In this document: in pieces, positions 27,886 to 49,077 of the stretch
How positions within the stretch are numbered: the first letter of the stretch is position 1
Layout: each line of letters opens with the position of its first letter
Source of the DNA: Spinacia oleracea
Taxonomy: Eukaryota; Streptophyta; Magnoliopsida; Caryophyllales; Amaranthaceae
Length of the DNA stretch: 64,000 nt
Reading direction: 5' to 3'
Assembly (NCBI RefSeq): GCF_020520425.1
Contig: NC_079492.1
Coordinates: 142,232,361 to 142,296,360, forward strand
Made by a program: the position numbers and the translations under genes
Notes under the pieces: generated by a model
What the model saw: only the letters and a program-made list of their open reading frames with translations
Told to the model about the DNA's origin: nothing
Database searches by the model: none

Positions 27886-30020
27886 TAATTAATCATAATT
27901 ATTCACAAGTGTTAATGTCTGTTGCAGTAGACGTAGATCAATAATGCCTCTCCCATCATCAACCTACAGTACAATCAAAATTACCCAAAATATAATCAGA
28001 TACTTTACAACGGCTCAGAAATTAAATACTTCCTCTATTTCTTAATAGTTGCACAATATTAACGGTTCGCACTATTTATTTACTGACTTTAATCAAATTT
28101 ATTAATATAATAACTATTTAGGTCCGGGGATGTCTCGAGTTATTTTGCAAATAACAACTAATTATTATATTTTTTAATGAAATTGTGTTTGTATTTTATT
28201 CACGAGATAATATTCTATGAAGTATTATATTAATATCAATTTTGTAAAAATAACATGTAAAAGTTATAGCTCAATTGGATAATGCTCTAGCGTTGATTAG
28301 GTTAATCTCAATATTTCCTGCTTAACTTTTCCCTAAAAAAACAGGACTAATCTCAATATATATTTTTAAAATATCTAATTTATTTATTAATACATAATTA
28401 AAGATATTGATAGTCGAAAATCAAAGTTTAGTCAGGAAGAAAGTCATTTGACGTGACTGTAACAAGCTAGCAATTAAGTCAAGTTCACCTGAGCTTGTAT
28501 GGTGTGAACCAAATTACTCTGAATTCTTGAAGAAATGCAGTTGATCACATTAAGTCCTTCATTGCTGAGTAAACAGAGCACCTTCGAAAGGCAAAGGGTC
28601 GTCCTTTCGTTGTTATCGTTGTACAATGGTGCACTTGTACTGATAATAACTTCTATGATTCCTTCTTTGCAAGGTTTTACTGTCACCTGCTGATGATTTT
28701 GCTGCTGATTTTGCTGGTTTGAATTCAAATTATGACTACTACTGCTTGAATGTCCACCTGATGATGACGAAGTTGTTCTGAGTAATCCATCTCTTTTATC
28801 GTTTAATCCTTTTATTCCTAGTTGTAGATTGTTTATATGGTTTGTGGTTTCTTCCAAGAGATCTGATATTGATCGTTTTCCCTGCATCGTAATGTACCAA
28901 CATACATCAGAAAATAAAGCGACTTGATTGTTATTTTTAGAAATTTCTAACCTACTGGCTTGACCATTGGAGTTGGAGTTCAAATGAGAAATTAGTTTGG
29001 GCAAGATTATTTACTTGAAAAATATCGGTCAATGAAAGTATTTTAATTAAATTAGATTTAGAATATTGATTAATAAGAATGAGTAAATTAAATATCAAGA
29101 TAATAGCTAAATATTGGGATACCAACTAACGGAAATGAGAGTATTTATTAGCTCAGAGTCATTGTAATTCACCCCATTTGAAAGGATGTGTCAGATAGTC
29201 CGCCTGAGTTTTCTTTCCTTATACAAAAAAGAAGAGAAAGGAGAGTATTTTATTATGCAGCATGACAAACTAATTTACGAACACCCCTTGTTATGATAGA
29301 AAGGTCATGTTTATGATGTTGCAATTAAGTGTTTTCTTTTGAAAACAACCATTGTAACAGAGCAACCACATACAAGGAAGAGTAGGAGAGCTTGATAGAA
29401 AGAATGCAATGAATAGAGAAGGAAAGTAGAGAATTTGATTTAATTACAAGCTCAACAGAGGTTCCACACTAAAACTAATTGACAATAGTGAGAGAAACTC
29501 CTCGAACTTATAAGTTGATATATATTTTCTCTTTTTTTTAAAGGCAACTTATATGTGTATTACTTCAACAGGTAAACGGGAGCAGAGTAGTTGAGTTAAT
29601 TAAATTACTAACCTTGATAGATTCAACAGGCAGTAATGACCGAAGTTCTTGGTAGAGAGATGACATTTCTTGCCTCCGCTTTCGCTCGATTTCCATAGCC
29701 TTCACATTCTTCTTTACGTCCTTACCCTTACCCTTATTCTTATTCTTATTCGGGGCCGGGGCTGGGGCCGGGGCCGGGGCCGGAGCCGAGTTGAACTCAA
29801 CAACATTATGTTGAGATTGTTGTGCTTCCTGAGGAGAAGTATGAAATGAGTTGTTAATCATTAAGGTATTATGATCTTGAGCTTGGTTTATTTCATTTGA
29901 AGCATCATGATTTTGAGGGATTTGTGGAAAAATACTACTAATAAGCTGCATTAGTTCATCATCAAGTATGATTGGATTGAAATCGAAGGGATCGCTCGAA
30001 GTTGGAGGATTGTGATCCAT
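27886..30020 (-). CDS. bHLH transcription factor, bHLH36/118/126-like
   Basis: Three exons: 29613-30020, 28489-28881 and 27886-27963, all phase 0, giving 292 residues. The bHLH domain spans the first intron, which lies at the site usual for this subfamily (SLLPVESIK / GKRSISDLLEETTNHINNLQ). The C-terminal part has the ACT-like region (VKPCKEGIIEVIIS, LCLSKVLCLLSNEGLNVINC, LVHTIQAQ) and a tail exon with LQQTLTLVN. The basic region reads KAMEIERKRR: Glu112 and Arg116 of the E-box contact triad are present but the usual histidine is Ala108. An Ala-Pro repeat precedes Asn-Lys and Gly-Lys repeats at about residues 79-102, encoded by hexanucleotide repeats. Stop choice: reading past the exon 2 donor would end after VNLT. 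It is a paralogue of the gene at 42096-44101, in the opposite orientation. Confidence 0.88.
29721..29790. repeat. Coding hexanucleotide repeats (GGGGCC and CTTATT/CTTACC)
   Basis: The plus strand shows a run of near-perfect GGGGCC units (29751-29786) next to CTTACC and CTTATT units. On the coding minus strand they give (Ala-Pro)n, then Asn-Lys and Gly-Lys repeats. The G-rich strand could form quadruplexes. Length polymorphism is likely. Confidence 0.9.
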
Positions 30021-38997: not shown

Positions 38998-39384
38998 TCA
39001 TTTCATTTGTACGGAGTATTATTTTCCCCCATTGTGTTGTGTTGTCTCATTTTTACTCTTGTTTGAACATCAGGCCATAACTTCTCCTTGTGCTCTTTCT
39101 GTCGCTTATAAGTTATAGACTCCGTGTACTTCAAAACCCTTCTACCTTCAGCTCTGCCTCTTATGAATTGAATTTATTCTAATAAGGGAAAAGGAATTTC
39201 ATCACTACTAGCAATTTCCCCTTGTATTTCATAGAAATTGCATACTTTCTGTGTGTACTTTGTTTCTCATCTTACTCTTTTCGCTTCCATGCTCATGATT
39301 TTATTTAAACTTTTGTGAATTGGGATGCTTGTCTAGGTTTGATCTGGATCTCACTGGTGATAAGAAAACCTGTAAACAATTATA

Positions 39385-40194
39385 ATGGGGTACGCACAAC
39401 TAGTCATTGGTCCTGCAGGAAGTGGGAAGTCAACTTACTGCTCTAGCTTGTACCGACACTGTGAAACCATGCGCCGTACAATTAATATTATAAACCTTGA
39501 CCCTGCTGCCGAAAACTTTGACTATCCCGTTGCTGTTGATATCAGGGAACTTATTAATTTAGAGGATGTTATGGAAGAACTAGGGTTGGGTCCAAATGGG
39601 GGTTTGATTTACTGCATGGAAGAACTTGAAGATAATCTTGATGACTGGCTTACTGAAAAGCTAGATGATTTCTTGGATGATGATTATTTGGTTTTCGACT
39701 GTCCTGGGCAAATTGAACTCTTCTCTCATGTTCCTGTTCTTAAAAACTTTGTGGCACACTTGCAGCGTAAGAATTTCAATGTCTGTGTTGTTTATCTGCT
39801 CGATTCACAGTTCATGACAGATGTTACCAAGTTTATTAGCGGTTGCTTGTCCTCTCTCTCTGCAATGGTACAGCTTGAATTGCCCCATGTTAATATCATG
39901 TCAAAAATGGACCTTGTAAAGAACAAGAAAGATCTTGACGATTTCTTGAACCCCGAGCCACATATGTTACTGTCACAATTGAATCGTCGAATGGCTCCAC
40001 AGTTTGAGAAGTTGAACAAAGCCTTGATTGATCTGGTAGATGAGTACAGTATGGTGAGTTTCATCCCTCTTGACTTAAGGAAAGATGACAGCATACAGTA
40101 TGTGTTGTCACAGATTGATATGAGCATCCAGTATGGAGAAGATGCAGATGTGAAGGTGAAAGATTTTGATATAGATAGCGACGGTGATGAATAG
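39385..40194 (+). CDS. GPN3: GPN-loop GTPase 3
   Basis: Single coding exon of 269 residues, full length for the family. It has the P-loop GPAGSGKST (residues 9-17), the diagnostic GPN triplet (69-71 in LGLGPNGG), the Walker B/G3-like DCPGQIE (105-111), the guanine-specificity motif SKMDL (173-177) and an acidic C-terminus (DFDIDSDGDE). Family knowledge: GPN1 and GPN3 form a cytoplasmic dimer needed to assemble and import RNA polymerase II. The first Met is followed at once by the P-loop strand, so the start is secure. The leader is spliced (37690-38001). Paralogue confusion with GPN2 is unlikely, because the opening MGYAQLVIGPAGSGKST is typical of GPN3. Confidence 0.95.
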   Translation: MGYAQLVIGPAGSGKSTYCSSLYRHCETMRRTINIINLDPAAENFDYPVAVDIRELINLEDVMEELGLGPNGGLIYCMEELEDNLDDWLTEKLDDFLDDDYLVFDCPGQIELFSHVPVLKNFVAHLQRKNFNVCVVYLLDSQFMTDVTKFISGCLSSLSAMVQLELPHVNIMSKMDLVKNKKDLDDFLNPEPHMLLSQLNRRMAPQFEKLNKALIDLVDEYSMVSFIPLDLRKDDSIQYVLSQIDMSIQYGEDADVKVKDFDIDSDGDE

Positions 40195-42040: not shown

Positions 42041-42095
42041 GAGGGAAATAGAGTGGGATGAAACAAACAAAATTAACTTTCCCTTTTCAATAATA

Positions 42096-44101
42096 ATGTT
42101 TGATCCTTATTGTTCACAAAATAATGAAATATTCTTTAATATTTCTGATTGTGTACCTCCAAATCAACTACTAGGTGATCAAATAATCCCATCATTAGAA
42201 CAACATAATGATCTTGATAATCTCCTTAATCAAATTCCAACTCTTGTCGAAGATCCTAATCGAAGTAAACGACCATTAGCATCAAAGTTAACATCCATTG
42301 ATCATGATCAAGGTAATGATGACTTGAATCCTAATGATATTAAGAAAAGGCAGAAGATTATTCATAGAGAAATTGAGCGAAAACGAAGACTTGAAATGTC
42401 TTCTCTTCATGCATCTTTAAAGTCTCTTCTTCCTCTTGAATGTATTAAGGTGAATACTCTCTTCTCTTTCTTGTTACCTACTCCTCTAACTCAAATTCTC
42501 ATGTCACAAAAAAAAAAACTCTTTTTTCATCTTGTGTTTAATACTTATCGTAGTTTTACAAGATAAAAGGTAATATTGTGTAATACTCTGATACTTATCG
42601 ATGCATAACTTTAAAAGACACTTAACCGAAGGGGAAAAGGAGAAAAGGAGAAAAGGAAGAAGCTAGGTGATATGTGTCTTTAAGGGGGTAGGAGGGATAA
42701 GGATAATTAGTATCCTTAACTAATTGTTATGTGCCATAAAATGACTCTTTACCCCACTAATCTTGTACGTGGCAGGTATAAATGTAACATATTTCGTATG
42801 AGATTTCTCTTAAAAAAAATGAAAAAATAACTTAGCTTCTCATAAAAAAAACATTGTTGCGACATAGTAAGGGTAATATAGTAACATTGTTGTTTTTATT
42901 CGCAAAATATTCCCACGAAAAATGTTAAACAAGATAAAAGGATAAAATAGATGAATTACCCATGATAAGTTCTCTATCCCTGTCCATAGATTGATCAAAT
43001 AAAAAGTTTTGGCATAACAAAAATTGCAAATCATTTTTTTACAGGGGAAACGATCGATGTCGGATCATTTGGGAGAGGCAGAGAAGTACATAAAGCAAAT
43101 GCAACAAAAATTGCAAGTACTGAATGACAAAAGAGATGATCTTAGAAAGGAAATGTCCAATTATAAAAGAATTGAATATGAAAATGATGTTAAAGTGAAT
43201 GTTTTCAAAGGAAGCATAGAGGTGATTGTTTGCACAAAGGAAGATGATGGGTTGCCTCTATCAAAAGTGCTTCAATGTTTAGACCAACAAGGGTTTGATG
43301 TGGTCAACTCTATTTCAAAGAAAGTCAACGCCAATTTTGTTCACTCCGTTCATGCTCAGGTATCAACATATTTTGTAAGGCTTTATTCTCTTCACCTGGT
43401 ATAATCTGATTTTTCTGATTTGGCTAAATAAGCAATAACAATAAGGTGAAAAATATAGAGCCTTACGTACTCCTACTTTAAATCTCTAATAGATTGTCCT
43501 ATAGTTACAGTCTTATTAATTCGACCCGTTACCAAAACAAACATTTTCCTACACAATGAGATTGTTTTGGCACGTGAGTATTGTCTTGGAAAAAATCTAT
43601 CATCCTTACCTCCTAACAGAGGGAAAGGTCTAAATTGTTTTGATTAGTTTGTCCACAAAAATATTCTTTTGATTATAGTGAGACCGTGACACCTGTAATG
43701 TTAGGGTGCTTAATGACTACCTAGTATATTTGAACTTGGAAATAATGAATAATATATCTATAATACTCTAAATAAATATGAAACGACTATAAACGTAATA
43801 ATCAATTTAACTTCAAGATGCGTACGAATTTTTCCTAAATCTTTAACAAACAACAAAACATTAAAATAAGTTTTTCTTAAAATACTCTTCTTTAAATATG
43901 AATTTATTATTTTTATCTTAACATGTAATCAATTAATTTCGAAAATAATTTAATTTGGTAATATGGTTGTGAAAATATGTACTAATTGAGTCATGATTGA
44001 TTTCGTTCATCATACAATATTAATGACAGGTTGGAGATGAGACCAACATCAATATTGCTGTATCAAATCTGAAGAAAATATTAGCTGATATCCGGAGATG
44101 A
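42096..44101 (+). CDS. bHLH transcription factor, bHLH36/118/126-like
   Basis: Exons 42096-42449, 43045-43359 and 44030-44101, all phase 0, giving 246 residues. The basic region HREIERKRR (His90, Glu94, Arg98) keeps the full E-box contact triad. Helix 1 is LEMSSLHASLKSLLPLECIK, and after the intron GKRSMSDHLGEAEKYIKQMQ starts the loop and helix 2. The ACT-like tail has VFKGSIEVIVC, LPLSKVLQCLDQQGFDVVNS and VHSVHAQ; the last exon encodes NLKKILADIRR. Family knowledge: nuclear E-box-binding dimers of this subfamily respond to stress or development; the target here is unknown. It shares intron positions with the gene at 27886-30020, so the two arose by duplication and were separated by rearrangement or intervening genes. 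Confidence 0.9.
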
Positions 44102-44573: not shown

Positions 44574-45602
44574 TAATTTTATTATTTTTCTTTAGCAATT
44601 GGAAACTCCATAAACAGAATTAATGACAAAAAAAAAAGAAAAACTTTAAGGATTTCAGAATTCACTGACTATTGACAGAAGGGGCAGACAGGGAATCATG
44701 TGGCGATGAGATAATTTTTTTTAACCCAGTAGGTTAACTATCCATATTATGTGGTTACAATTAGGTTAATCACAAAATGAGTCAATAATTCACTCATTAT
44801 TTGAATGTGAGGTGGTTCTAGCAATCTTGGCATAATTCGCTAGCTAACAACCTGGTGGGGAGATGGCTATGGCTATGGCTAACAACCTGGTGGAGAGATG
44901 GCCATAGTCCACCTTCTAAATTGCGCCAAAAATTAGTGCCAGCCCAAATTTAACTTGATTAAAAAAAGTTACTTGCCGATGAATGACAATTTTTATATCC
45001 CTCAATGAGATCTTGACTTAGGGGTAAAGACTGAAAATCCATATACAATAGGTTTGAAATTTAAATCCCCGTCTCTAGACATGTCAAACGGGTCGGATGG
45101 ATCGGTCGGGTTGGGTTGTAAAAAATTATTTTCGGATTGAATCGGGTCGATCCCTTTCGGGTTCGGGTTTACAAATGCTTGTTCAAGACCCAGAACTTTC
45201 GGGTTCCGGTCGACCCAGCGGGTTTTAAAACGCACATTATATTTCATTTAGGTGATAAATATACAAAATATGGGCACAAATTAACAAATTTTCCTACACA
45301 AGTTTATATTTAGTCAAATTATATCATAAAATGACGTATAATCAAAATTAAAATCATATTACACACAACAATAGTAAAAATAACGTGTCTATTATGCTTA
45401 AATTTTCTCATAATCTCATTTATTACAATAAATACAATGATTTTCAATTGGTCGGGTCCAAAACGGGCCCGGTCGAGTTTTCTCCCATTCCTTTCGGGTT
45501 GCTTTGGTTCAGATAAAATCGGATTACGCGTCACAAAATCTTGTTCAGTACCCAATATTTTTGGATCGAGTTCGGGTCAGTTTTCAAGTCGGGTCAATTA
45601 TT
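44574..45602. other. Spacer with GGGTCGGGT-type repeats
   Basis: Contains a short direct duplication around gctaacaacctggtgg (44846 and 44878) and two zones, near 45085-45230 and 45450-45600, of cgggttcgggt / gacccagcggg sequence facing each other across an AT-rich centre. This looks like a decayed element with gggtcgggt ends. No gene recognised. Confidence 0.5.
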
Positions 45603-45859
45603 ATCGGTTTTTTCATGAAATGCCCCTGAGGTTTGCAAAAACGCACCAAATACCCTCGCGTCTTTTGAATCACATAATATACCCCTATTTTTTCATACTG
45701 TTCATGAGATGCACTTGGAGTTAACGGACGTTAGTCCTCCGTTAGCTGCAGTTTACCATTTTGCCCTTAATATATATTTTTCGACCTAAAATCAAAAAAA
45801 AAAAAAAATCTCAAACTTCTCTCCAAACTCTTCCTTCGATTCCCTAACCTCAAACATAT

Positions 45860-46350
45860 CTCCCTTTCCGATTTCCATGGCGAACCCACTTCAATTCTTC
45901 AATTCATTTCACTTTCCCTGGCCTATCTAATCACACCGATTTCCCTTCGAATTCGATTCAACAATTTCCCAATTCATCTCTCAAGTCGATTAAATCGCTC
46001 AAGTTGCACAATTTTTCAATTGTTACTGATTCCGATTTGGGGGTTATTTCCCAGTTCATCACAAATTTGGAGGAGTTGGATGTAAGTAATCCAAAGGATG
46101 ATTACTGCGTTACTGGTGTTTCTGGTGGTGGTGGTGCTGCTTTAGGGATCACTGATGAAGGCGTTGATTTGATTGCTTCGAAGCTCCCTCATCTCAGAAA
46201 AGTTAATTTGTCTAGTAATTACTTCATTTCTGATAAATCTCTTATTAATCTTTCTGAGAAATGCTTAAATTTGGAGGAGATTATAGTAAACAATTGCAAT
46301 TTCGTGACTCAAACTGGGTTTGCTTTGCTTTACAAAATTGCCAGAATTTG
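45860..46350 (+). pseudogene. F-box/LRR protein fragment inside Pack-MULE
   Basis: Encodes several leucine-rich repeats of the F-box/LRR (cysteine-containing) type: NLEELDVSN, GITDEGVDLIASKLPHLRKV, NLSSNYFISDKSLINLSEKC and LEEIIVNNCNFVTQTGFALL. The F-box itself is not visible, and the frame upstream of about 45990 is disrupted by stops. The frame closes at 46349-46351. Most likely a captured and truncated host gene piece rather than a working gene. Confidence 0.7.
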
Positions 46351-46369
46351 AATTCTATATCTGTTCTAG

Positions 46370-47363
46370 GGATGGATTTGGTTTTTTGAGGTTTAGTTCT
46401 GAACATTTCAACCGTATATGGGGATCAGATTCAACAGGGGATAGTGCTGTTGAATTAGATACAGTTCCTGCAATGTATGGAATAGTTCTCAAGTTCTCAT
46501 CCTCAGCTCCATATGGTTCTATACCATCATATCATATCCCATTTCTTCTTGGCGAATCGGCTTTTGAGATCCCCCACAAGAAAGAGTCATTGGACATTGT
46601 CCCAGCTGGAATTCAGTCCAATGAAAAGTCAGTTTCTAGTTCACTTGTTACCATTGAATTGGAACCCCGAGAACCTGTGCCAGGTCTTGTGGATGTTTCC
46701 ATTAACGCGAATGCAGAAAATGGTCAGGTTGTTAATGGGAAGCTTCAGGGGGTCTCAGTTGGCATCGAGGACATGTTTCTCAAGGCTGCTGCCCCAACTG
46801 AGATTCTAGAAGACACAGTTCCAGGATATTACTCCGCCCTTTTTGATGCTTTGTGGGAGGTATGTGGTGCCTCTTCCAGTGCAGGTCGGGAAACATTTTC
46901 ACTAAAAGGAGGTAAGGGGTTTGCAGCAATCCATGGAACACAATCAGTTAAGCTTCTCGAAGTTCCTTCAACCTTAGCAATTCGTGTTGTTGAAAGATAT
47001 TTAGCCCCCTTTGTTGTTGGTGTGATTGGTAGACCTCTGGTGGAGGTTGTGAAGGACGGTGGCTTAATCCAGGATGTGGCATGGATAGATATGTTTTCAG
47101 GTTCTGCTAATGAGAATAACTCGGTTGCGAATTTTGATGGTGGTCCACTATATTTGACATACTTTGAAAATGAAGATGGTAAGATCAACATTGGTAAGAC
47201 AAACATGGGTTGCTTTCTTGTGTTGATATTCCTACCACCCAGGTATCATCTTCTCTTTCGGATGGAAGTTTCTGATATTTCAACATTGGTCCGAATTAGA
47301 ACAGATCACTGGCCTTGTTTAGCCTACATTGATGATTATTTGGAAGCTCTTTTTTCTTTGTAA
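46370..47363 (+). pseudogene. C-terminal fragment of an adaptor-like protein (TASH3-like?) inside Pack-MULE
   Basis: A continuous frame of about 330 codons ends in a natural-looking stop after DDYLEALFSL. Conserved-looking blocks are VPGLVDVSINANAENGQ, GIEDMFLKA, YYSALFDALWEVCG, LKGGKGFAAIHGTQSVKLLE, RYLAPFVVGVIG, NMGCFLVLIFLPPRYHLL and MEVSDISTLVRIRTDHWPC. From memory this resembles the C-terminal region of the plant SH3-domain adaptor subunit TASH3 of the TPLATE (TSET) endocytic complex; the assignment is moderate only. No introns interrupt it. The start is not defined, because the N-terminal part is missing and it abuts the LRR fragment. It may be transcribed, but function is doubtful. Confidence 0.55.
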
Positions 47364-48215
47364 CCGGGGTTAGTCTTTTCTGCTGCTATATACTCATTCC
47401 ATTGAGAAAGGAGTATGTTCTGTTCTCTTTTGTTTGCGTTACAGCAGTTGGTTACATATTTTCTGTTCAAATTCTTTTCCCAGATTGTTTTTTACTTGGG
47501 AAAATATTCTTTTTGCATCAGAAATAAAAAAATGTATATATTCTAGTGTCAATCATTCACCAGCTGCACTTTTGTACAAGAAATTTATACAATCAGTTCT
47601 GAGAGGTGAAATACTTGTATTTTGGTTGTATACTTCTCTGAGAGTATGATGTTAACATGTAATTCTACAATTAGTGTTTAGCTTCTGGCTGTTTGGTTGT
47701 CAGGTGCCTTTTGTTTCGAACTTCAGCTGAGATGTGAGATCATTTGATCAAAATCTAACGAAGGCCCAATATGTTATACTTGTATGTTTTTTGTTAGGAT
47801 TCTGGGTATTGTTCCTTGATTAAGAATCTACAAACTATACAAGCAGCAAGTTTGGATGAAGAAAACATGGTTGTTACGCAACTTTCTTTCTTTTGATAGT
47901 ATAAAACTTACTGGACTAGCCATTTGAATCAAATTCTGCCGTTTAAAAGCAGTTTGGGTATTTCGTGCAAATAAGTTTACAAGTAGGTGTATATTGTGTA
48001 ATACGTTTATAAATAGGTGCATTTGATGAATTATAAACATGACTTAACGGAGGACTAACGGAAGGTCGGCTTAGGGGTATTTGGTGCAAACTAAGGCAAA
48101 AATAGGGGTATATTATGTGATTCAAAAGACGCGAGGGTATTTGGTGCGTTTTTGCAAACCTCAGGGGCATTTCATGAAAAAACCGATTTTTAAAAGGTCT
48201 ACCCGTCTCCCATTT

Positions 48216-49077
48216 CACAAATTCTTATTTACAATGGGTGTACAATAAATATTGTACACCAGAGTAAAAGTTAACTCAAAATGATTAAAAGTTAAGCATA
48301 TACATGTAAAAGTTATCTATTTTTCAGTGATAAATTTTTTCATTTTAGTAAAACTTATTTCTTTAAAATAACTAATAATGTATAAAATTAAGGCAAATTT
48401 GCCAAAAAGGACCTTTTATAACTCAAATTTTGCGAAAAAGGACCTTATATAATTTTTTTTGTGAAAACACACCTTAAAGTAATTTTTTTTGCGAGAAAGG
48501 ACCTAAGGAATGTTTCCGGCATTGACTGAGCTTTTCCGGCCATTAACTTGCACGTGAGCAGCACGTGTGGCTTACGTTGGCTAAAGACAATGATTTTCCT
48601 GACTCTTGAATTTTCAAACTTGATTTTATTTCGGTTTTTCTTTTCAACTTTAGGTTTTAAAGCTTAGAATTTTGGAGGAAAATTGGGTGTGATTAGCAAA
48701 ATAATGCCACACGTGCTTCTCACGTGCAAGTCAATGGCCGGAAAAAACTCAGTCAATGCCGGAAATTTACTCTTGGTTGTCTTTCGCAAAAAAAATTACA
48801 TTAATGTGTGATTTCACAAAAAAAAATTTATATAAGGTCCTTTCTCGCAAAAAAATTTACATTAAGGTGTTATTTCACAAAAAAAAATATATAAGGTCCT
48901 TTCTCGCAAAATTTGGATTATAAAAGGTCTTTTTTAACAAATTTGCCTAAAATTAATCATTTAAGCCTTTAAAATATTTATCTATCAATTTCTTTTTTAC
49001 TAATATAAAAGTTACAAAAAAAGGGTTAAAATTATCTTACTGTACAATAAATTTATTATAGACCTTGTGCGCACAAG
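48216..49077 (+). mobile_element. Family A repeat carrying a nested foldback element
   Basis: Starts cacaaattcttatttacaat and ends gaccttgtgcgcacaag, matching the other family A copies, but is split by a 557-bp insertion (48391-48947). It lies just upstream of the HPR gene, so it may touch its promoter. Confidence 0.75.
48391..48947. mobile_element. Foldback-like element, nearly entire inverted repeat
   Basis: Ends aggcaaatttgccaaaaagg and (reverse complement) ggcaaatttgttaaaaaaga; pairing continues through aaaggacc and the inner ccggcattgactgag / ctcagtcaatgccgg and gcacgtgag / ctcacgtgc blocks to near the centre. The 8-bp taaaatta occurs on both sides (48383-48390, 48948-48955). Probably a MULE- or hAT-type MITE. 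The transcript would form a long hairpin. Confidence 0.8.

What the first reader, a model, noticed from the sequence alone, without database searches (positions are those of the whole stretch)
45603..48187. Young Pack-MULE joins an F-box/LRR piece to a second host gene piece
The inverted ends match almost perfectly over about 88 bp, while the cargo holds an LRR fragment and then an intact ~330-codon frame ending in a natural stop. Two unrelated host genes in the same orientation, side by side, could make a new chimeric transcript. The long open frame suggests recent capture or some constraint.
Basis: partly seen in the sequence, partly recalled or inferred. Interest (0 to 1): 0.72.

Follow-up and report, generated by a model that had tools for sequence, protein, structure and literature searches.

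The report
Jumping gene that captured genes twice
In what is very probably the spinach genome, a small cut-and-paste transposon that had long carried a piece of one plant gene recently swapped part of its inside for the tail end of a second, unrelated gene and now sits at five places; such gene-carrying transposons are known, but here the before, the donor and the after all survive almost unchanged, which shows how the swap may have been made.

Summary
Window 45605-48185 is a 2,581-bp non-autonomous element with 88-bp perfect terminal inverted repeats (TIRs), no transposase found, and pieces of two host genes. The supplied genome (894 Mb, six large contigs) fits Spinacia oleracea. Piece 1 is an LRR fragment of an F-box/LRR-like gene (578-codon frame, C6:149.74 Mb, 88%). 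Piece 2 is the last-exon end plus 3' flank of an AP5B1-type gene (C2:98.25 Mb; 1,482 bp; 3 differences in this copy, 2-4 in its three full sisters). The genome also holds at least 11 elements with the same ends and LRR piece but no AP5B1, and five with it (four full length, one deleted). So the pieces were not captured together: the LRR element was already multicopy, and later about 616 bp of its inside were replaced by AP5B1 DNA across 3-bp and 4-bp microhomologies, which fits template switching during gap repair. The long frame is open because capture is recent: 3 of 4 coding changes in the four full copies are nonsynonymous, the LRR frame is broken, and this copy encodes no fusion protein. 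Known kind (multi-gene Pack-MULE), unusually complete example. Transcription untested.

The parts
45605..48185 (+). whole non-autonomous MULE-type element, 2,581 bp
   Evidence: CGG...CCG termini in all 20 copies examined; 100% inverted arms
45605..45692 (+). left 88-bp terminal inverted repeat
48098..48185 (-). right 88-bp terminal inverted repeat
45597..45604 (.). left target-site copy, degenerate (6 of 8 identical to the right one; 9-bp version 5 of 9)
   Evidence: site colinear with the 12 fetched relatives of the flanking repeat
48186..48193 (.). right target-site copy, degenerate
45605..46387 (+). acceptor-derived 5' part: TIR, subterminal sequence and LRR piece
45811..46387 (+). LRR fragment of an F-box/LRR-like gene (parent in L023 3505-5241, C6 about 149.7415-149.7432 Mb); frame broken by a 19-bp deletion and, in this lineage, a 1-bp deletion
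   Evidence: 88% to parent; K2P 0.084 and indels measured on sister L012; 1-bp deletion
46385..46387 (+). junction 1, 3-bp microhomology (TTT) between acceptor and AP5B1 donor
46385..47866 (+). AP5B1 fragment: last-exon coding part (46386-47363) and 3' flank with AATAAA at 47523; donor C2:98251197-98252678
   Evidence: 1,479 of 1,482 identical to donor in this copy; Pfam PF21590
47863..47866 (+). junction 2, 4-bp microhomology (AAAC)
47863..48185 (+). acceptor-derived 3' part with right TIR
   Evidence: 99.4-99.7% identical to the 11 LRR-only elements over about positions 2261-2583

Best explanation
A Pack-MULE built by two captures far apart in time. Shown by sequence: an older element family carries an LRR fragment and has multiplied; in one branch, probably close to the element now at C4:164596032, about 616 bp of the interior are gone and 1,482 bp of the AP5B1-type gene of chromosome 2 stand in their place, joined at 3-bp and 4-bp microhomologies; the chimera is now at five places, and one of these copies has a further deletion across a 4-bp overlap. 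Inferred: the swap happened when a double-strand break or excision gap inside the element was repaired by synthesis that switched to the AP5B1 locus and back (gap repair or fork-stalling template switching), followed by mobilisation by a transposase supplied in trans. Most likely it is neutral cargo with no protein of its own; transcription from the TIR into the AP5B1 3' end, and small RNAs against the AP5B1 parent, are possible and untested. Separate odds: identity as a two-gene Pack-MULE 0.96, order of captures 0.95, template-switch repair 0.65, no coding function 0.85.
For: Four full copies plus one deletion derivative, 11 LRR-only elements, one AP5B1 donor (lower bounds). Polarity: the 607-bp segment missing from the chimeras matches in all 11 LRR-only elements (in 3 of them only its last 400 bases) and, at 89-98% in pieces, in three older relatives, so the LRR-only state is ancestral. 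Base-level junctions; random breakpoints give an overlap of 3 or more in 6.3% and of 4 or more in 2.1% of 200,000 trials. The donor locus (9.9 kb fetched) has no hit to the TIR. A 1-bp deletion is found in the four full chimeras and L011, and not in the 10 other LRR-only elements nor in L024-L026 (L010 lacks the site). Perfect 9-bp TSDs in 18 of 20 copies. Donor identity 1,480/1,482 in two copies, 1,479 and 1,478 in the others.
Against: Microhomologies of 3 and 4 bp are short; 3 or more is not rare by itself (6.3%), and the joint chance of about 0.001 assumes that the two ends are independent. End joining of a linear AP5B1 fragment into a broken element would leave similar joints. The lineage link to L011 rests on one base in a short T run, and FastTree put L011 beside the older L024-L026 rather than with the chimeras. 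No autonomous partner was found: of 150 scored transposase hits none lies within 23 kb of 74 listed TIR positions, both lists being partial. The window copy has a degenerate target-site duplication although its sequence is very young.
Confidence: 0.82

Rival explanations
1. Neighbouring-insertion model: two elements flanked the AP5B1 end and were mobilised together as one, carrying the DNA between them.
For: Proposed for Pack-CACTA and extended to other Pack-TYPE elements (PMC8903248, passages).
Against: No TIR within the 6.7 kb before and 1.7 kb after the donor piece. Both junctions lie deep inside the same acceptor element, at places where the 11 sisters are continuous (junction 1 printed for 11; junction 2 printed for 5 and, by adjoining coordinates, for 11), and about 616 bp are replaced, which this model does not predict.
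Confidence: 0.08
2. A broken element captured a linear AP5B1 fragment by microhomology-mediated end joining (ligation, not templated synthesis).
For: 3-bp and 4-bp overlaps at the junctions.
Against: The donor locus still holds the piece, so a free extra copy of a 1.5-kb donor fragment is needed. The product alone cannot exclude it.
Confidence: 0.2
3. The chimera is a functional new gene under constraint.
For: The donor-derived frame (325 codons, a few less in L010) is open in all five copies; AATAAA is included.
Against: Changes against the donor are 3 nonsynonymous and 1 synonymous; LRR frame broken; no in-frame ATG before AP5B1; the piece is the carboxy-terminal part only.
Confidence: 0.08
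4. The window copy is an older insertion whose inside was overwritten by gene conversion from another chimera.
For: Target-site copies differ at 2 of 8 positions, while the copy has only two private base changes and one extra A against the other chimeras.
Against: Flanks are colinear with the empty site of the surrounding repeat, as for a simple insertion; L004 also has an imperfect target site, explainable by a 2-bp indel, so imprecise insertion or local mutation may be simpler.
Confidence: 0.12

Closest known systems
Pack-MULEs of rice and other plants with fragments from two or more genes
   Same: Long TIRs, 9-bp target duplications, no transposase, host-gene fragments. In most Oryza species about 100-300 MULE-derived putative genes (5-10%) draw on at least two parents (PMC4858842, passages).
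   Different: Here the acceptor family, the donor and the product are all present at near identity, so order and breakpoints can be read directly; GC of the captured piece is 40%, whereas the Oryza cargo is described as GC-rich.
Pack-TIRs of animals formed by gap filling or FoSTeST
   Same: Internal part of the element replaced by other DNA, with microhomology (1-36 bp, median 2) at one breakpoint or more in 67.6% of cases; multicopy cases lie far from the parent (PMC8277862, passages).
   Different: Plant MULE; second capture on top of an earlier one.
Pack-TYPE elements explained by mobilised neighbouring insertions
   Same: Non-autonomous DNA elements with host DNA (PMC8903248, passages).
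   Different: No flanking family member seen at the donor; internal replacement instead of fusion.
PM-ZIBP Pack-MULE family of tomato
   Same: Multicopy Pack-MULE family with a gene fragment whose parent is identified (PMC3310237, passages).
   Different: That family has mostly tandem TIRs and one captured gene; here single TIRs and two genes.

Membership tests
Pack-MULE | long terminal inverted repeats | tested here: met
   88 bp, 100%
Pack-MULE | 9-11 bp target-site duplication | tested here: met
   family: perfect 9 bp in 18 of 20 copies; the window copy itself 5 of 9, or 6 of 8, so inconclusive for this copy
Pack-MULE | no transposase inside | tested here: met
   only LRR and AP5B1 domains in the two main frames; the other, shorter frames were not scanned with Pfam
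Pack-MULE | host-gene fragments with parents elsewhere that are not transposons | tested here: met
   LRR parent on C6, AP5B1 donor on C2; no TIR hit in either fetched locus
Pack-MULE | autonomous MULE with matching ends in the genome | tested here: inconclusive
Assignment to MULEs rests on TIR length and 9-bp duplications
Ordinary host gene | one colinear gene across the two pieces | tested here: not met
   parents on different chromosomes
Functional chimeric gene | single open frame across the junction with a start codon | tested here: not met
   different frames, LRR stop at 46349-46351, first AP5B1-frame ATG inside AP5B1
Functional chimeric gene | transcript | not testable with these tools
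   no RNA data at hand

The most novel reading that the evidence does not exclude
This is one of the clearest plant examples in which acceptor element, donor gene and chimeric product can be lined up base for base, showing that an already mobile Pack-MULE can exchange part of its cargo for a gene on another chromosome by template-switching repair and remain mobile; serial capture would then be the family's normal way of evolving, as its mosaic relatives suggest.
Probability: 0.4. Interest if true: 0.6.

Novelty: new member of a known kind. Interest (0 to 1): 0.42.

Why it matters
How MULEs pick up genes is still described as unresolved (PMC8277862, start of abstract; PMC3310237 and PMC13317346, passages). 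A young event with all three players intact helps to tell the models apart: this one shows replacement inside an existing element, short microhomology at both joints, and no family member beside the donor. No report of this spinach element came up: 'Pack-MULE' with 'spinach' gave one paper, on sucrose genes, 'AP5B1' with 'Pack-MULE' none, and the spinach genome paper has no occurrence of 'MULE' or 'Mutator' in its main text. Searches were seen as listings only, apart from the papers named here, and one search listed only off-topic papers. Subscription papers are mostly not held, so this is weak evidence of absence.

Tried and rejected
Single colinear host gene: rejected for this genome. Constraint on the AP5B1 frame: no sign, too few changes for a real dN/dS. 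Pfam on a 94-codon frame of the acceptor segment and on a 184-codon frame of another family member: no family at E <= 0.01. The solved-structure search confirmed AP5B1 only weakly (8yab, E 0.0021). Fusion frame in the deletion copy L010: a 416-codon frame, stop to stop, runs from the LRR piece into AP5B1, but with no ATG before AP5B1 and with the LRR part out of the parental frame after the 19-bp deletion. Tree of the common parts: very short branches and weak support; it did not join L011 to the chimeras, and the one diagnostic deletion was used instead.

Full report
What was checked. The inverted ends are real: 90 nt at 100%, of which the outer AT is flank; the 20 copies examined all read CGGTTTTTTCAT at the start and AAAAACCG at the end (the ends were located by their CGG/CCG letters). 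The element is 45605-48185, 2,581 bp. Its two frames are as described: an LRR piece (Pfam LRR_4 8e-7; closest solved chains F-box/LRR proteins) and a 351-codon frame whose gene-derived part is the carboxy end of AP-5 complex subunit beta-1 (PF21590, 6.9e-11; PF21589, 7e-4, just under its cut-off; solved chain 8yab, E 0.0021).

Host. The supplied genome has 894,210,420 bases in 242 contigs; C1-C6 sum to 879,186,916 bases, 98.3% (lengths, sum). The Monoe-Viroflay spinach assembly is reported at about 894.3 Mb, six pseudomolecules, about 98.3% anchored (PMC8668906, passages). I infer spinach; no marker gene was compared.

Copies. The whole element is present four times (window; C1:116.80 Mb; C6:135.08 Mb; C5:4.90 Mb), the other three at 99.8% to the window copy, and a fifth copy at C6:145.71 Mb lost an internal stretch across a 4-bp AGTT overlap. 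The four differ by 3-4 substitutions pairwise. Eleven further elements (L011-L021) have about the first 785 and last 323 bases at 98.6-99.7% but no AP5B1. Older relatives L024-L026, L028, L080, L022 and L027 share parts. These counts are lower bounds, since the search scores only the best candidates (40 of 2,416).

Parents. The best match of the LRR piece outside the elements is C6:149.74 Mb, a single 578-codon frame, 88% over 608 aligned columns for L011; three other loci match only at 32-39% of residues. On sister L012 the K2P distance to this parent is 0.084 over 582 sites, with a 19-bp deletion and a 6-bp insertion. Pfam finds LRRs but no F-box in it at E <= 0.01. The AP5B1 piece matches C2:98251197-98252678 over 1,482 bp: 2 differences in L002 and L004, 3 in the window copy, 4 in L003, two of them shared by all. 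The piece lies in the last exon (splice acceptor near L009 6208 judged by eye) and runs 503 bp past the stop codon, with AATAAA included and no poly(A) at the joint, which fits a DNA template better than mature mRNA. No TIR of the family was found in the 9.9 kb donor locus. With a borrowed rate of 6.5e-9 per site per year (recalled, not calibrated here) the LRR capture is about 6 million years old and the AP5B1 capture about 0.1 million; only the ratio should be trusted.

Order and mechanism. All 11 LRR-only elements match the segment that the chimeras lack (only the last 400 of 607 bases in three of them), and three older relatives match it at 89-98% in pieces. The LRR-only state is therefore ancestral, and AP5B1 came in by replacement of about 616 bp. 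At junction 1 acceptor, donor and chimera share TTT; at junction 2 they share AAAC. With random breakpoints in L011 and the donor locus, overlaps of 3 or more arise in 6.3% and of 4 or more in 2.1% of 200,000 trials. A 1-bp deletion is present in the four full chimeras and in L011 (C4:164.60 Mb) and absent from the other 10 LRR-only elements and from L024-L026; L010 lacks the site. Replacement inside one element, microhomology at both joints, an unlinked donor without a family member beside it, and later mobility match the gap-filling/FoSTeST description for animal Pack-TIRs (PMC8277862, passages) better than the neighbouring-insertion model (PMC8903248, passages). Ligation of a free fragment cannot be excluded.

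Against the reading. FastTree placed L011 beside L024-L026 (support 0.90), not with the chimeras; branches are near zero length, and my link rests on one base. The window copy's target-site copies agree at 6 of 8 or 5 of 9 positions and L004's at 6 of 9 (a 2-bp indel would restore it), against 9 of 9 in the other 18. The left flank of the window copy is the tail of a high-copy repeat. In the 12 relatives that I fetched (of 39 others listed) that repeat continues ATTTTTGACAG in 12 of 12, followed by NTCTA in 11 of 12; the window's right flank reads ATTTTTAAAAGGTCTA, so insertion into this site is clear, but the target copies differ more than the age of the element predicts. No autonomous element was identified.

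Function. In the window copy the LRR frame stops at 46349-46351, before the junction, and the AP5B1 frame has its first ATG 296 codons from its end. Against the donor, coding changes in the four full copies are S-to-P (all), A-to-T (window), S-to-L and one synonymous (L003): 3 nonsynonymous, 1 synonymous in 978 bases. This is compatible with neutrality and too little for a test. I see no reason to invoke constraint. A TIR-driven transcript ending at the AP5B1 poly(A) site and small RNAs against AP5B1 remain open.

Setting. The element lies about 1.0 kb upstream of the likely ATG (49211) of a 2-hydroxyacid dehydrogenase gene, in keeping with the insertion of MULE cargo at 5' ends of genes that PMC4858842 cites (passages).

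Verdict. A real, young, two-gene Pack-MULE; [quoted passage not shown] Its value is the intact trio of acceptor, donor and product.

Noticed in passing
window 45597-45604 and 48186-48193: Target-site copies of the window insertion differ (6 of 8 alike) although the element is 99.8% identical to its full-length sisters; gene conversion of an older insertion or imprecise insertion could explain it.
   Followed up: partly
L010 (C6:145710917-145713174): A deletion derivative joins the LRR piece and the AP5B1 piece in one 416-codon open frame, stop to stop, without an ATG before AP5B1.
   Followed up: partly
L028, L080, L075, L077: Other members with the same ends are patchworks of further segments, some with weaker matches elsewhere (for example C5:22896179 89%, C5:31395898 80%), suggesting repeated capture in this family.
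   Followed up: partly
L011-L021: Six of 11 LRR-only elements lie on C4, which holds about 21.5% of the anchored DNA (binomial P 0.017, uncorrected).
   Followed up: no
window 48382-48957: Inverted-repeat element with arms of 123 nt, 89% complementary, and nested inner arms, between the Pack-MULE and the next gene.
   Followed up: no
window 29565-30020 (-) and 42042-42563 (+): Two bHLH gene fragments, alike by eye, in one window (the second is just under Pfam's cut-off).
   Followed up: no
window 39376-40194 (+): Single open frame of a PF03029 (GPN-loop type, name recalled) GTPase, 272 codons stop to stop, E 7.6e-85.
   Followed up: no
L009 4314-4751 (-): Frame that looks, by eye, like the zinc-binding end of a reverse transcriptase, lying between likely exons of the AP5B1 donor gene.
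   Followed up: no
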